From: Candidatus Peregrinibacteria bacterium | Lineage (GTDB): Bacteria; Patescibacteriota; Gracilibacteria; UBA1369; LOWO2-01-FULL-3 | Assembly (NCBI GenBank): GCA_030688025.1 | Contig: JAUYJL010000022.1 | Span: 1-33,429, forward strand | DNA: 33,429 bases | Direction of reading: 5' to 3' | Shown: positions 1 through 27,333 of the stretch, in pieces | How the letters are laid out: each line of letters starts with the position of its first letter | Numbering within the stretch: position 1 is the first letter of the stretch | Translations under genes and position numbers: made by a program | The notes under the pieces: model-generated | The model's database searches: none | What the model was told of the DNA's origin: nothing | Seen by the model: only the letters and a program-made list of their open reading frames with translations

Positions 1-250
1 ATCATAAAAAAATATCAGAAGGGCATCATTATTATTCTGCACTATTAGCCGTATCTAGGAAGTTTTTAAGAGAATTTTTCTATATGGCAAAGCAAAATGC
101 CTTCTTCTCTTGACCGATTCGTTATAACAAGTTTTCTAAAAAGATTTTTTGACTATTTTATTGAATTCTTTTTTGTAGGTGGTATTATTTTGGTAATCAC
201 CACGAGAGGAGGTTCATAAGGGTTAGTCCTTATGTTAATTGCCTCTCATT
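1..250 (+). other. Intergenic region with nested stem-loops and a terminator-like end
   Basis: I see no credible gene here. Three hairpin groups are visible. At 68-111 AAGAGAA pairs with TTCTCTT around an inner GGCA/TGCC pair. At 179-203 GTGGTATTA pairs with TAAT-C-ACCAC with one bulged C. At 204-247 GAGAGG pairs with CCTCTC around an inner perfect 7-bp stem CATAAGG/CCTTATG (215-234). The last structure is followed by a T-run (249-254), so it could be a plus-strand rho-independent terminator for a transcript entering from beyond the left edge, or the 3' end of a small structured RNA. I recognise no known RNA family. Confidence 0.45.
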
Positions 251-257
251 TTTTATT
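204..257 (+). terminator. Putative intrinsic terminator with a two-tier stem
   Basis: The outer stem GAGAGG (204-209)/CCTCTC (242-247) encloses the inner stem CATAAGG (215-221)/CCTTATG (228-234) with a 6-nt loop. A run of six T follows at 249-254. Read on the plus strand this has the form of an intrinsic terminator. The asymmetric internal loop between the two stems is unusual for a plain terminator. Confidence 0.4.
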
Positions 258-753
258 TGTATTCAAGTTTTGATTTAAGGGGATTCATGAAGTCTATTTT
301 GTCCCTTGCACATTTCTTAAGTAAGTCCGAATATTTTTTTGCATTTGGTATTAATAATCTTTCCAACTTGTGATTGTTTTTTAGATATTCAACCAAGCAA
401 TGAAAATCTCCGTCTCCGGTAACAATAATTGCTTTGTTGTAATTTTTGTATTCTATCATGGAGTGCAAGACTAATTCGGCATCTATATTACCTTTTATTT
501 TTCCGTCTGAACTCCTCGAAATAGGTTTAAAGATTATTCTGTAACCGAATTTGTAAAGTCTTTCATATAACGATTTGTTGCTTGGAACATATCCTAAAAA
601 CACAAAGGATTCTGTAACATTGTATTTTTCTTTTAAATATATTTTTAACTTTGCAAAATCCAATTTCCAGCCTTGATCTCGGATTGAGAGGTTTAAATTT
701 TGGCTATCGATAAACGTGTAAATAATTTCTTTTTGTTGCTGTTTTTCACTCAT
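253..753 (-). CDS. NYN-domain (LabA/DUF88-type) PIN-like nuclease
   Basis: A 166-residue protein with the layout of the NYN branch of the PIN-like superfamily, whose members are usually metal-dependent RNases. An N-terminal beta strand ends in FIDSQNL (about residues 14-20) with the first acidic residue. NIDAELVLHSM (about 89-99) supplies the central acidic residue. VTGDGDF (about 111-117) supplies the paired Asp residues. The spacing fits a complete single-domain protein with no RNA-binding extension. The ATG is not preceded by a Shine-Dalgarno sequence; the upstream 130 bp are AT-rich with one small hairpin at 783-796. The gene lies downstream, in the same orientation, of the yqeY/tRNA scar. 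The family call is fairly secure; the RNA target is unknown. Confidence 0.8.
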   Translation of the reverse strand: MSEKQQQKEIIYTFIDSQNLNLSIRDQGWKLDFAKLKIYLKEKYNVTESFVFLGYVPSNKSLYERLYKFGYRIIFKPISRSSDGKIKGNIDAELVLHSMIEYKNYNKAIIVTGDGDFHCLVEYLKNNHKLERLLIPNAKKYSDLLKKCARDKIDFMNPLKSKLEYK

Positions 754-883
754 ATTGAAAAGTTTTAAATATTAAATTTCAATGAGTGTAAACTCACGAC
801 ATTAAATTTTCTTAAAATATTTATAAAATAATCGCCCTAATAACATTGAGAAAGGCTTTTTGTTTTTTTGATTGCTCGTAATC

Positions 884-932
884 TTCACCCCAGCATTTCC
901 TGAACTAATTTATTTACCAAGCCACCGTCGGC
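884..932 (-). pseudogene. Orphan C-terminal tail of a second yqeY copy
   Basis: Read on the minus strand, 932 down to 885 encodes ADGGLVNKLVQEMLG followed by TGA. This matches the last 15 residues of the intact YqeY at 2325-2771 except for one Arg-to-Lys change. At DNA level 887-933 and 2327-2373 agree at 42 of 47 positions, in direct orientation. Four of the five differences are synonymous and the fifth is conservative. Such a pattern points to a tail that diverged while part of a working gene rather than a fresh duplication. Upstream of the tail there is no YqeY sequence; it runs straight into a tRNA 3' half. Confidence 0.7.
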
Positions 933-933
933 T
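887..933. repeat. 47-bp direct repeat, left copy (partner at 2327-2373)
   Basis: Matches 2327-2373 at 42 of 47 positions in the same orientation. The right copy is the 3' end of intact yqeY. The pair brackets the GT2 glycosyltransferase gene and the tRNA half. The left copy ends in CCGTCGGCT, where yqeY-like and tRNA-like sequence coincide, so this 9-mer is the likely recombination junction. Confidence 0.75.
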
Positions 934-974
934 AGTTAACGCCTACGAGAGTTCGAATCCCTCCCTGCCCACCA
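926..974 (+). pseudogene. 3' half of a class II (probably Tyr) tRNA gene
   Basis: The stretch has the parts of a tRNA 3' half in order. A long variable arm pairs CGTCGGC (926-932) with GCCTACG (941-947), with one mismatch. The T arm has the loop TTCGAAT (952-958) between GAGAG and CCCTC, with one A-C mismatch. The acceptor 3' strand CCTGCCC (964-970), discriminator A971 and encoded CCA (972-974) follow. The matching 5' acceptor strand (GGGCAGG), D arm and anticodon arm are missing upstream, where the yqeY tail stands instead. The long variable arm limits it to Tyr, Leu or Ser; its start resembles tRNA-Tyr. It is probably not functional. Confidence 0.65.
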
Positions 975-975
975 T

Positions 976-2232
976 TTATTGTTTAATTAGCTTTTGCTCG
1001 ATTCTTTTTTGTGATGCAATCCACTTTCCGTATTTATCCCTCTTTTTGTATTCTTCTAAAGCTCTTTTTATATTTTGTATGTTGTTTATTGTTATTTTCC
1101 CGTTTGCTATTACATAATCGCTGTTTTTAAATCCAAGTTTGCTCATTATTCCCTTAAATAATTCGAGAGCTCTTTGACTATCCGGTATGCTTCTTAAGAA
1201 ATTACCAATAAAAATATTTAGATAAAATTCAATTATTTTTATGTTGTTTTCGTCTAAGACAAGGCATTCTTTCACCCCTTCCATTATTTGTTCATGACTT
1301 AACTTTCTAATTTCCCTTTCGTGATTTGCTTCGCCAAAATTTTGATAACTTGGCAACATTTGCCCTTGAAAAAGTGATGACACAAATCTTCTTGCTGAAG
1401 ATATTATTATTCCTGAAACCAATTCAATAGTACCTGATCTAATACTTTCAATTTTTACGCTTATGTCTAAATCCTCCGATCTTTTAAGGGATGGATTATA
1501 TCCGCCGATTTCTGCATATGTTGAGGATCTAAACATAGCATTCCCTCCGGCAAGAACTCTTCCATACGGCTTGTTTGAGCCAAAAGTTTCTAAAGGTAGT
1601 GTTTGAAGTAAAATTCTTGTTCTCTCTTTTGCCAGCGTTTTTAAAAGTAATATATCGATTTGAGCTAATAATTCTGGATCTATCAATGTGATTCCTGCTA
1701 TCGCATCGAGTTTGGGATATGACTCCATCATGTTTATATGATTGGAGACCAATCTATTATCTACATGAATTAGGTCTGCGTCCGTGGATTGTATGTAAAA
1801 ATTTTTGTCTTTTTTTGCCCTTGTCTCGTGACGCATTACGGCTAGATCTGTCAGAATTTTTCGTACTGCACCGATAGTTCTTTCGCCCGGAGGAAATTCA
1901 TATTCCAATACGTGAATCTTAATCCCTGAGAATGTTTGCCGGGCTCTCAATGCTTCTTTTAATGTATCGTCTTTTTCTACATCTTTTTCTGTATTAACAA
2001 GAACAATTATTTCCCACTTTGCAGGATTTAGCATAGCTGTTCCTTCTGTGTTGAACTGTTTTGCAAATCCGCGAATTGCATCAAAAACATGCTTCTCTTC
2101 TAAAAAAGCTGGGATGAGCACACTTGCTTGGCACTGTTCATCCATTGCGGGGATCTCAGCATTTAGGTGTTCCAAAATGCTTGCATCTTCACCCCTCAAA
2201 TTTTTTAAGTATTCTGATTCTTTGCTTTCCAT
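976..2232 (-). CDS. GT2-family glycosyltransferase
   Basis: A 418-residue soluble protein with a GT-A-like glycosyltransferase fold. ASVLIPAFLEEKHV (about residues 36-49) is the nucleotide-binding first strand. STDADLIHV (about 149-157) carries the DXD-type metal and sugar-nucleotide motif. GGNAMFRSSTYAEIGGYN (about 229-246) is the acceptor-side motif, and RSEDLDIS (about 252-259) holds an ED pair typical of the GT2 catalytic base region. There are no membrane segments, so it is probably cytoplasmic or peripheral and may build surface glycans. Its stop codon begins one base after the CCA of the tRNA fragment, and the gene sits between two diverged copies of the yqeY tail, suggesting that it arrived as an insertion. 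Donor and acceptor sugars cannot be told. Confidence 0.75.
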   Translation of the reverse strand: MESKESEYLKNLRGEDASILEHLNAEIPAMDEQCQASVLIPAFLEEKHVFDAIRGFAKQFNTEGTAMLNPAKWEIIVLVNTEKDVEKDDTLKEALRARQTFSGIKIHVLEYEFPPGERTIGAVRKILTDLAVMRHETRAKKDKNFYIQSTDADLIHVDNRLVSNHINMMESYPKLDAIAGITLIDPELLAQIDILLLKTLAKERTRILLQTLPLETFGSNKPYGRVLAGGNAMFRSSTYAEIGGYNPSLKRSEDLDISVKIESIRSGTIELVSGIIISSARRFVSSLFQGQMLPSYQNFGEANHEREIRKLSHEQIMEGVKECLVLDENNIKIIEFYLNIFIGNFLRSIPDSQRALELFKGIMSKLGFKNSDYVIANGKITINNIQNIKRALEEYKKRDKYGKWIASQKRIEQKLIKQ

Positions 2233-2324: not shown

Positions 2325-2771
2325 CTACCCCAGCATTTCCTGAACTAATCTGTTTACCAGTCCGCCGTCGGCTTTGCCTTTGGTTTGGGGCATAATTGCA
2401 CCCATTAGTTTGCCGATGTCGGCTTTTGAAGAGGCTCCAGTAGAGGCCATTGCTTCTTTGATTATGGCTTTTATGTCGTCTTCGCCGAGTTGAGGTGGTA
2501 GATATTTTTCTAGAACTTTTAGTTCTGCTTTTTCTTTTTCAGCAAGTTCCGGACGTCCTCCTTTTTCGAATTGTTCGATCGAATCTTTACGTTGTTTTAT
2601 TTCTTTTCCGACTAATTGGATTACTTCTTCATCCGTTGCAACTTTTGGTTCACCTGCTGTTTCCAATTTCATGATTGCTGTTTTTAGCAGGCGGATAGCC
2701 GAAAGTGAGGCTTCATCTTTCGCTTTCATTGCTGTCATTAAGTCCTGTTGTAGTTGTTCTTTGAGTGACAT
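2325..2771 (-). CDS. yqeY: GatB/YqeY domain protein
   Basis: A 148-residue all-helical protein matching the YqeY family in length and order. The N-terminus reads LKEQLQQDLMTAMKAKD and LSAIRLLKTAI. A middle section reads EVIQLVGKEIKQRKDSIEQFEKGGRPELAEKE. LEKYLPPQL (about residues 88-96) follows, and the C-terminal half (GKLMGAIMPQ, then KADGGLVNRLVQEML) resembles the tRNA-binding tail domain of GatB. The family is implicated in tRNA-linked functions but its role is not settled. The gene starts 4 bp after the phosphoketolase stop, so the two are probably co-transcribed. Its 3' end is the right copy of the 47-bp direct repeat. Confidence 0.9.
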   Translation of the reverse strand: MSLKEQLQQDLMTAMKAKDEASLSAIRLLKTAIMKLETAGEPKVATDEEVIQLVGKEIKQRKDSIEQFEKGGRPELAEKEKAELKVLEKYLPPQLGEDDIKAIIKEAMASTGASSKADIGKLMGAIMPQTKGKADGGLVNRLVQEMLG

Positions 2772-20140: not shown

Positions 20141-22339
20141 TTATTGTTCTATAATTAACGGAACAATCAGCGGACGGCGGTCGAGACGTTTTGTAATAGA
20201 CTTTTCGACTGCGCGCTTTATCTGATTCTTTATTTCTTTTCTATCAACTTTTTGCTTCTTTGCACTGATTGCAGTATAAGCTGTTGCCGCGATTTTTGAA
20301 ATTTCTTTTGTTATTTCGCTCAATTCATGAGGATAAACAAGTCCTCTCGAAACGACATCCGGCTCTTTGGTTAATTTTCCGTCTTTCGCGGAGACATAAA
20401 CTAAAACAAGCAATGCTCCGTTTTCCGACATTATTTGTCGATCTATTATTACTTGTGAATCGATTTGTCCTTCTCCGGAACCATCGATCAAGATGTAATT
20501 TGTTTCAACTTTTTCTTTTGTCTTCTTTATCTTTCCGGCATCTGTCGCAAGAACATCTCCATTTTGGAGCATTATTACGGCTTGTTCCGGAATTCCACAA
20601 TCTTTGATTGCGAGATTCGCCAATGCCTGTCTCATGAAAAATTCTCCATGAATCGGAATTAAATATTTCGGTTTTATAAGATTTATCATTTGCTTAAGCT
20701 CTTCCTGCTTCGCGTGTCCCGATGTATGGACTTCCATGATTTGGGTGTGAATTACTTCGGCGCCAAGCATGCAAAGTTTGTTTATAACATTTGAAATAGA
20801 TCTTTCATTTCCTATAATCGGTGATGCAGAAACAATGATCAAATCTCCTTTTTTCACTTTATATTGTGAATGTTCGCCTCCCGCCATACGGCTTAGGGAA
20901 GCCGTTGCTTCACCTTGAGCTCCTGTCGTTAGTATCAATGCTTCTTCGTCGCGAACTTCTTTTTCTTTATATTTTTTTATGTCGGTGACTAAACCTTTCG
21001 GCATACTTAAATACCCGAGTTTCTCTGAAATTTCTATATTGGTCTTCATGCTTCTTCCTGAAACAAAAACTTTTCTTTTGTTTTTTACCGCACTGTCCAG
21101 GATTTGTTGAACCCTTCCAATTTGGCTTGAGAATGAAGCAACAATGACTCTGCCTTTCGCTTTCGCAACGATTCCGTCCAATACTTCTCCGACATCTTTT
21201 TCGGAAATAGTGTGGCCCGGTTTTGTCGCATTTGTGGATTCACATAAAAGCGCGAGGACGTTTTGTTTTCCTAGCTCAGCTATTTTATGAACTTCCGCCA
21301 TTTGCATATTTCGTGGAGGAGTTTCGTCAAATTTGAAATCTCCGGTTGTCACAATTTTCCCCGCAGGAGTATCTATAATGATACCCATTGCGTCCGGAAT
21401 CGAATGCGCAACTCTGAAAAAACTAACTGAAAAATTTCCAAGTTTTATTTTTTCATCCGACTTTATCGTATGTAATTTTGTGAATTTTTGAATTTTGAAT
21501 TCTTTTATTCTTTCTTCAATAAGTCCAATTGTCAGAGGCAGTGAATATATCGGTGGAAAATCGAGTTTTGGCAGTATATAAGGTATTCCGCCTGTGTGAT
21601 CCAGATGTCCGTGAGTTATAAAAACTCCTCTGATTTTCTTTTTGTTTTTTTCCAAATATTTCACATCCGGAATTACGTAATCTACTCCAAGCAATTCTTC
21701 GCCCGGAAATTCAAGTCCCATATCTACAATAATGATGTCATTTTCGTATTCGAAAATTGTCATATTTTTCCCGACCTCGTCGAGTCCTCCTATTGGGATT
21801 ATCTTTAATTCACCTTTTAGCGCAGGGTAAGCTTGTCGTTCGTTTTGCGCTTGAGGCTGAGGTCTTTGTGGCTGTAGTTTCTGAAACTGTGGTCGTGGGT
21901 TGCCCACTTGTGGTCGTTGATTTTGGACCTGTGGTTTTTGTGCGTTGGGCTGATGCCTTGGTGCATTAAAACGTTGTTGAGGATTTCTTCCTTGAACCTG
22001 CGGTCGCTGGTTCGTAACTTGTGGCTTTGATGCGCTAGGCTGATGCCTTGGTGCATTGAAACGCTGTTGAGGATTTCTTCCTTGAACCTGCGGTCGCTGG
22101 TTGCCCACTTGTGGTTTTTGGTTTTGGACCTGTGGTTTTTGTGCGTTAGGATTAGGCTTTGGGGCCGGTCTCTGGCTAAAACTTCTTTGTCCTTCTTTTC
22201 TTTGTTGAGCTTTTTGCGGATGATTCGGGTTTTGGTGGGTTTGCGATAAGTTAATCGCAGGTGAATCTTTTGGATGCACCTCTTTATTTCCCTCCATACC
22301 GAAAGCTCTCTTCATCCATTCGTCAATTCTATCGTCCAT
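20141..22339 (-). CDS. rnj: Ribonuclease J with a long disordered N-terminus
   Basis: A 732-residue protein: residues about 177-732 are a complete RNase J (endo/5'-3' exoribonuclease of the metallo-beta-lactamase/beta-CASP type). Signs are IPIGGLDEVGKN, the metal motif HGHLDHTGG (243-251), VAHSIPDAMGI, TGDFKFDETP, CESTNATKPGHT and, in beta-CASP, SGHAKQEELKQMI and PIHGE. Residues about 25-172 are Gln/Pro/Asn/Arg-rich and surely disordered. They include two 30-residue tandem repeats (81-110 and 111-140), absent from textbook RNase J of about 555 residues. A basic, low-complexity arm could bind RNA or partners. A good promoter stands upstream. Confidence 0.93.
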   Translation of the reverse strand: MDDRIDEWMKRAFGMEGNKEVHPKDSPAINLSQTHQNPNHPQKAQQRKEGQRSFSQRPAPKPNPNAQKPQVQNQKPQVGNQRPQVQGRNPQQRFNAPRHQPSASKPQVTNQRPQVQGRNPQQRFNAPRHQPNAQKPQVQNQRPQVGNPRPQFQKLQPQRPQPQAQNERQAYPALKGELKIIPIGGLDEVGKNMTIFEYENDIIIVDMGLEFPGEELLGVDYVIPDVKYLEKNKKKIRGVFITHGHLDHTGGIPYILPKLDFPPIYSLPLTIGLIEERIKEFKIQKFTKLHTIKSDEKIKLGNFSVSFFRVAHSIPDAMGIIIDTPAGKIVTTGDFKFDETPPRNMQMAEVHKIAELGKQNVLALLCESTNATKPGHTISEKDVGEVLDGIVAKAKGRVIVASFSSQIGRVQQILDSAVKNKRKVFVSGRSMKTNIEISEKLGYLSMPKGLVTDIKKYKEKEVRDEEALILTTGAQGEATASLSRMAGGEHSQYKVKKGDLIIVSASPIIGNERSISNVINKLCMLGAEVIHTQIMEVHTSGHAKQEELKQMINLIKPKYLIPIHGEFFMRQALANLAIKDCGIPEQAVIMLQNGDVLATDAGKIKKTKEKVETNYILIDGSGEGQIDSQVIIDRQIMSENGALLVLVYVSAKDGKLTKEPDVVSRGLVYPHELSEITKEISKIAATAYTAISAKKQKVDRKEIKNQIKRAVEKSITKRLDRRPLIVPLIIEQ
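21920..22099. repeat. Two 90-bp tandem repeats inside rnj
   Basis: Units 22010-22099 and 21920-22009 encode QRPQVQGRNP-QQRFNAPRHQ-P plus a variable end, each 30 residues. The first 65 bp or so differ at only two positions, so the duplication is recent or kept alike by recombination. The frame is kept. Confidence 0.85.
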
Positions 22340-27225: not shown

Positions 27226-27333
27226 GGAAAGTTGGGATAAATATATCCTTGAGCTTATGCTTCTTTTGATGAGTTCCCGTCTTTGGAATAAATAAACACA
27301 ATGCGCTCAAGAATATATTTATCCCAACTTTCC
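27226..27333. repeat. 108-bp element with 29-bp inverted arms
   Basis: Arms 27226-27254 and 27305-27333 are inverted repeats of 29 bp with one mismatch, around a 50-bp centre. The left arm starts 4 bp after the prfB stop. No target-site duplication is seen at the ends. As RNA it would form a very stable hairpin and could end or protect the prfB message. As DNA it has the form of a MITE-like miniature element. No T-run follows the right arm directly. Confidence 0.8.

What the first reader, a model, noticed from the sequence alone, without database searches (positions are those of the whole stretch)
884..974. Chimeric scar: diverged yqeY tail joined to a tRNA 3' half
The last 15 codons of a yqeY copy (minus strand) run directly into the 3' half of a class II tRNA gene (plus strand). 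They share the 9-mer CCGTCGGCT at the junction (925-933). The 5' half of the tRNA and the rest of that yqeY are gone. tRNA 3' ends are classic integration targets, and the shared 9-mer offers a crossover point. This looks like a past integration or excision event in a genome that otherwise shows no mobile genes here.
Basis: partly seen in the sequence, partly recalled or inferred. Interest (0 to 1): 0.65.

Follow-up and report, generated by a model that had tools for sequence, protein, structure and literature searches.

The report
Recombination scar at a tRNA-Tyr gene
A fragment of a tyrosine tRNA gene fused to the end of a second yqeY copy marks where two versions of the same small chromosomal interval were joined head to tail by an old recombination event; it is a real but mechanistically ordinary genome scar in an uncultivated Peregrinibacteria-type bacterium.

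Summary
Window 880-933 is an 87% copy of the yqeY 3' end at 2320-2373, and it runs into a tRNA 3' half (928-974). The intact tRNA is the genome's tRNA-Tyr(GTA) on contig C16, matching 54 of 57 bases and 10 bp beyond its CCA. C16 and this window share an exact 141-base end, the tail of an IS110 element. In three same-genus genomes asnS, tRNA-Tyr, a cargo slot, yqeY and xfp lie in a row, so the two contigs form one locus: asnS, intact tRNA-Tyr, IS110, NYN gene, [yqeY tail + tRNA-Tyr 3' half], glycosyltransferase-like gene, yqeY. The scar is therefore the junction of two head-to-tail copies of the tRNA-Tyr-to-yqeY slot with different cargo. The yqeY tail differs from the resident gene almost only synonymously, so it probably came from a working yqeY of a sister lineage. 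I favour homology-anchored illegitimate recombination with imported DNA; a tRNA-targeted circle or plain tandem duplication are less likely. It was wrong that the 9-mer is shared with the tRNA, and wrong that no mobile gene is present. Known kind of event; modest interest.

The parts
1..141 (+). 3' end of an IS110-family transposase (stop codon 111-113) and the element's right end; identical to revcomp of G000:C16:1-141 and to C26:1-141
   Evidence: NF033542 IS110 RNA-guided transposase, 160.7 bits, above cut-off
253..753 (-). NYN-domain protein gene (cargo of the first slot copy); one of six matches of this family in the genome
   Evidence: (PF01936)
880..933 (-). Second copy of the yqeY 3' end: 15 codons 888-932, TGA stop 885-887; 87% identical to 2320-2373, differences nearly all synonymous
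928..933 (+). Junction: TCGGCT in scar and yqeY versus TCTGCT in tRNA-Tyr; the only microhomology common to both parents
928..974 (+). tRNA-Tyr(GTA) 3' half from the anticodon stem to the encoded CCA
975..984 (+). TTTATTGTTT, shared with the 10 bases after the intact tRNA-Tyr; includes the stop codon of the glycosyltransferase-like gene
976..2232 (-). Glycosyltransferase-like gene (cargo of the second slot copy), without a homologue at E 1e-10 in 29 other genomes of the family
2325..2771 (-). Intact resident yqeY, right border of the slot
   Evidence: (PF09424)

Best explanation
The scar is the seam between two head-to-tail copies of one chromosomal slot, the interval from the 3' half of tRNA-Tyr to the 3' end of yqeY. 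The first copy carries the NYN gene and an IS110; the second carries a glycosyltransferase-like gene. The two alleles come from sister lineages. The mechanism I think most likely is inferred: imported DNA holding tRNA 3' half - glycosyltransferase - yqeY was anchored by homologous recombination in yqeY/xfp, and its other end joined illegitimately, at the short match TC.GCT, to the end of the recipient's yqeY (homology-facilitated illegitimate recombination). The recipient's yqeY body was replaced and only its last 15 codons were left. Whether IS110 landed before or after is not shown. Shown: the seam, the two duplicated borders, the intact tRNA, the conserved slot in relatives, and the synonymous pattern. 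Inferred: foreign origin, order of events, and transformation as the route.
For: Both duplicated pieces are exactly the two borders of the interval that lies between tRNA-Tyr and yqeY in all three other genomes of the genus. Contig linkage: C16 and C25 share an exact 141-base end, and the other IS110 copy's flanks, C13 and C26, are directly adjacent in all three relatives, which leaves C16 and C25 as partners. The yqeY tail differs from resident yqeY by 5 of 45 coding bases with one R-to-K change (K also in G003) and a kept stop; it is closer to resident yqeY than to any relative (9-13 differences), and the chance of at most one amino-acid change after 5 random changes is 0.017-0.036. The cargo differs between the two copies apart from a few bases at each border. 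ComEC is present (a ComEC family is reported in 86% of CPR genomes, PMC6744442). Such events are described in transformable bacteria as RecA-dependent and involving 3-10 bp segments (PMC6382021).
Against: No donor genome with the glycosyltransferase next to tRNA-Tyr or yqeY was found. The microhomology is only GCT, or TC.GCT with one mismatch. The synonymous argument rests on five substitutions. The tRNA fragment mixes own-type (GAGAG) and relatives'-type (CCCTCCC) sequence, which this model does not explain. A shift in divergence along yqeY/xfp is weak (xfp 3' half 91.1% versus 5' half 86.7% to G002) and not a clean import signal. Natural transformation has not been demonstrated in this organism.
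Confidence: 0.5

Rival explanations
1. Integration into tRNA-Tyr of a small circular element whose attachment site was the tRNA 3' half: the intact tRNA marks one end, the displaced fragment the other, and NYN (plus a later IS110) is the cargo, as in tRNA-borne genomic islands.
For: Intact tRNA and displaced 3' fragment in the same orientation, 57-bp repeat extending 10 bp past CCA. This is the end-point pattern that Islander uses (abstract of PMC4383910). The cargo slot varies among relatives.
Against: No integrase gene between the repeats; the genome's only two PF00589 matches are Xer-like and lie on C6 and C23. The interval is only about 2.1 kb, or about 0.9 kb without IS110. The yqeY tail next to the fragment is not predicted unless the circle itself formed by joining yqeY to the tRNA.
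Confidence: 0.2
2. Plain tandem duplication of the slot inside one genome by illegitimate recombination between yqeY and tRNA-Tyr, followed by replacement of the cargo and divergence.
For: One event of this kind duplicates precisely both borders and gives this order.
Against: The two cargos are unrelated (NYN versus glycosyltransferase). The duplicated yqeY tail should have drifted freely, but its changes are nearly all synonymous.
Confidence: 0.2
3. Assembly chimera.
For: The genome is a metagenome-type assembly in 34 contigs, and this contig begins in a repeat.
Against: The shared stretches are 54 and 57 bp, shorter than the 141-base overlap at which contigs end, so they should not cause a misjoin. 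Synteny with relatives holds on both sides. The divergent yqeY tail and tRNA 3' end exist nowhere else in the genome.
Confidence: 0.05
4. The fused piece has a function of its own, for example as an RNA structure at the 3' end of the glycosyltransferase message.
For: It lies at the gene's stop codon and keeps a T-arm-like hairpin.
Against: No terminator-like site there. No Rfam match above threshold. No copy spanning the junction was listed in 59 related genomes.
Confidence: 0.05

Closest known systems
tRNA-borne genomic islands (Islander type: regenerated tRNA plus displaced 3' fragment)
   Same: Intact tRNA and displaced 3' fragment as a direct repeat around variable cargo
   Different: No integrase between the repeats, very short interval, and a duplicated yqeY 3' end abuts the fragment
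Homology-facilitated illegitimate recombination in natural transformation
   Same: One side explained by homology in yqeY/xfp, the other by a microhomology join; acquired cargo
   Different: Seen here only as an old scar; donor and transformation not observed
IS110 family insertion
   Same: Adjacent copy with DEDD and Transposase_20 domains and a non-coding upstream region
   Different: The seam itself is not an IS end; IS110 lies 0.7 kb away and is not needed for it

Membership tests
tRNA-borne genomic island | Intact tRNA at one end and its 3' fragment in the same orientation at the other | tested here: met
   C16:1264-1349 and window 928-974, joined through the 141-base overlap
tRNA-borne genomic island | Integrase gene inside the island | tested here: not met
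   Between the repeats lie only the IS110 transposase and NYN; PF00589 matches are on C6 and C23
tRNA-borne genomic island | Empty site in relatives with one tRNA and no fragment | tested here: inconclusive
   Three same-genus genomes have one intact tRNA-Tyr and no 47-base fragment, but each has a 20-base copy of the tRNA 3' end 80-82 bases downstream
Homology-facilitated illegitimate recombination | Microhomology at the illegitimate join | tested here: met
   GCT exact, TC.GCT with one mismatch; short enough to be weak evidence
Homology-facilitated illegitimate recombination | Imported segment with homologous anchor on the other side | tested here: inconclusive
   Synonymous divergence of the left-over tail fits; no clean divergence step in yqeY/xfp
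IS110 family | DEDD_Tnp_IS110 plus Transposase_20 domains | tested here: met
   (C16:29-988)
IS110 family | Guide (bridge) RNA in the non-coding end | not tested
   About 240 non-coding bases upstream of the transposase, C16:989-1229, not analysed for a bridge RNA

The most novel reading that the evidence does not exclude
The tRNA-Tyr 3' end in this genus is a recurrent recombination site that lets the slot between tRNA-Tyr and yqeY swap and stack cargo alleles without a dedicated integrase. The covarying 20-base second copies of the tRNA 3' end in all three relatives would be another trace of it.
Probability: 0.15. Interest if true: 0.5.

Novelty: new member of a known kind. Interest (0 to 1): 0.25.

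Why it matters
It shows how an uncultivated, small-genome bacterium gains genes next to a tRNA by joining two alleles of one slot, and leaves a readable seam that orients the event. The class of event is known, so the value is mainly as a well-resolved example and as a correction of the view that this stretch has no mobile DNA.

Tried and rejected
A split or intron-containing tRNA was rejected: an intact tRNA-Tyr without intron lies just upstream on C16. The 9-mer as a homologous crossover was rejected: the tRNA lacks it. A nearby integrase was looked for and not found. An origin of the glycosyltransferase within the family was looked for and not found; in the order there are only 28-32% matches in two genomes. 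A divergence step in yqeY/xfp as proof of import was looked for and only weak mosaicism was seen.

Full report
Observation. The window is a whole contig (C25) of a 1.18 Mb genome in 34 contigs, 98% complete. Bases 880-933 repeat the 3' end of yqeY (2320-2373) at 47/54 identity. They code for ADGGLVNKLVQEMLG and a stop on the minus strand. From 928 on, the sequence is the 3' half of a tRNA ending in an encoded CCA at 974. A search of the genome finds the source: tRNA-Tyr(GTA) on contig C16:1264-1349(-), matching window 928-984, so the match runs 10 bases past the CCA. Both matches are far beyond chance (E about 1e-10 and 1e-18). The nine-base word at the seam is shared with yqeY only; tRNA-Tyr has ATCTGCTGG there, so the parents share only TC.GCT.

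Locus. The first 141 bases of C16 are the exact reverse complement of the first 141 bases of the window, as expected for two assembly-graph neighbours. The shared piece is the end of an IS110 element whose transposase fills C16:29-988. A second copy of the element is broken across C13 and C26. In three same-genus genomes the C13 and C26 flanks are adjacent, and asnS, tRNA-Tyr, a cargo slot, yqeY and xfp lie in a row, with dus next in the two whose listed ORFs show it. So C16 and C25 belong together: asnS(-), tRNA-Tyr(+), IS110, NYN(-), yqeY tail, tRNA-Tyr 3' half, glycosyltransferase-like gene(-), yqeY(-), xfp(-), dus(+). The public records of these relatives are named Candidatus Peribacteria or Peregrinibacteria.

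Slot. In G001 and G003 the slot holds a homocysteine S-methyltransferase-like gene, and in G002 only what looks like its last codons. In the window's genome it holds IS110 and NYN and, after the seam, a glycosyltransferase-like gene that no other genome of the family has at E 1e-10. The two duplicated pieces at the seam are exactly the right and left borders of this slot. The simplest description is two slot copies head to tail.

Mechanism. The left-over yqeY tail does not look like a decaying copy of the resident gene. Its five coding differences include only one conservative amino-acid change, and the stop is kept although spelled differently. With five random changes, at most one amino-acid change is expected in 1.7-3.6% of cases. 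It is closer to the resident yqeY than to the three relatives (5 versus 9-13 differences in 45), so it probably stems from a working yqeY of a near sister lineage. This, and the unlike cargos, favours joining of two alleles over a duplication within one genome. Homology-facilitated illegitimate recombination explains all pieces in one event: homologous anchor in yqeY/xfp, microhomology join at the yqeY end. It is described for transformable bacteria (PMC6382021). The genome has ComEC, which is reported as common in CPR bacteria (PMC6744442). This step is inferred, not shown.

Rivals. A tRNA-targeted element gives the same intact-plus-fragment pattern (abstract of PMC4383910), but there is no integrase in the interval; the only two tyrosine recombinases found are Xer-like and elsewhere. 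The model also needs an extra step for the yqeY tail. Plain duplication and assembly error are less likely for the reasons listed under rivals.

Loose ends. The tRNA fragment mixes GAGAG (own and G002 type) with CCCTCCC (G001 and G003 type) in its T-stem. All three relatives carry a 20-base second copy of the tRNA-Tyr 3' end 80-82 bases downstream, with the same variant as that species' own tRNA. This hints at repeated exchange at this tRNA end, but is not explained.

Verdict. Real, old recombination scar; known kind of event; modest interest.

Noticed in passing
L072:4435-4622, L073:8985-9173(-), L074:5820-6009(-): In three same-genus genomes a 20-base copy of the tRNA-Tyr 3' end lies 80-82 bases downstream of the gene and carries the same variant as that species' own tRNA (concerted change).
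   Followed up: partly
window 795-832: AT-rich motif of about 31 bases (just upstream of the minus-strand NYN gene) recurs at least 13 times in the genome and in family members; other copies lie upstream of NYN paralogues, of a gene pair that looks like a PIN-type toxin-antitoxin module, and of a Bro-N-like gene. Possibly a shared promoter.
   Followed up: partly
L076:1-138 and L075:1-154: Second IS110 copy between a DHH-type gene (C13) and carB (C26); the G002 sequence shows the empty site.
   Followed up: partly
window 253-753: The NYN gene belongs to a family with six matches in this genome, patchy in the family, one copy with an internal stop.
   Followed up: partly
window 21882-22147: Internal repeats of about 65-102 bases at 87-89% identity (self-BLAST).
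   Followed up: no
window 27226-27333: Inverted repeat with 29-base arms at 97% identity.
   Followed up: no
L072:4714-4803: G002 slot keeps only what looks like the last codons of the homocysteine S-methyltransferase-like gene, an apparent deletion in the same slot.
   Followed up: partly
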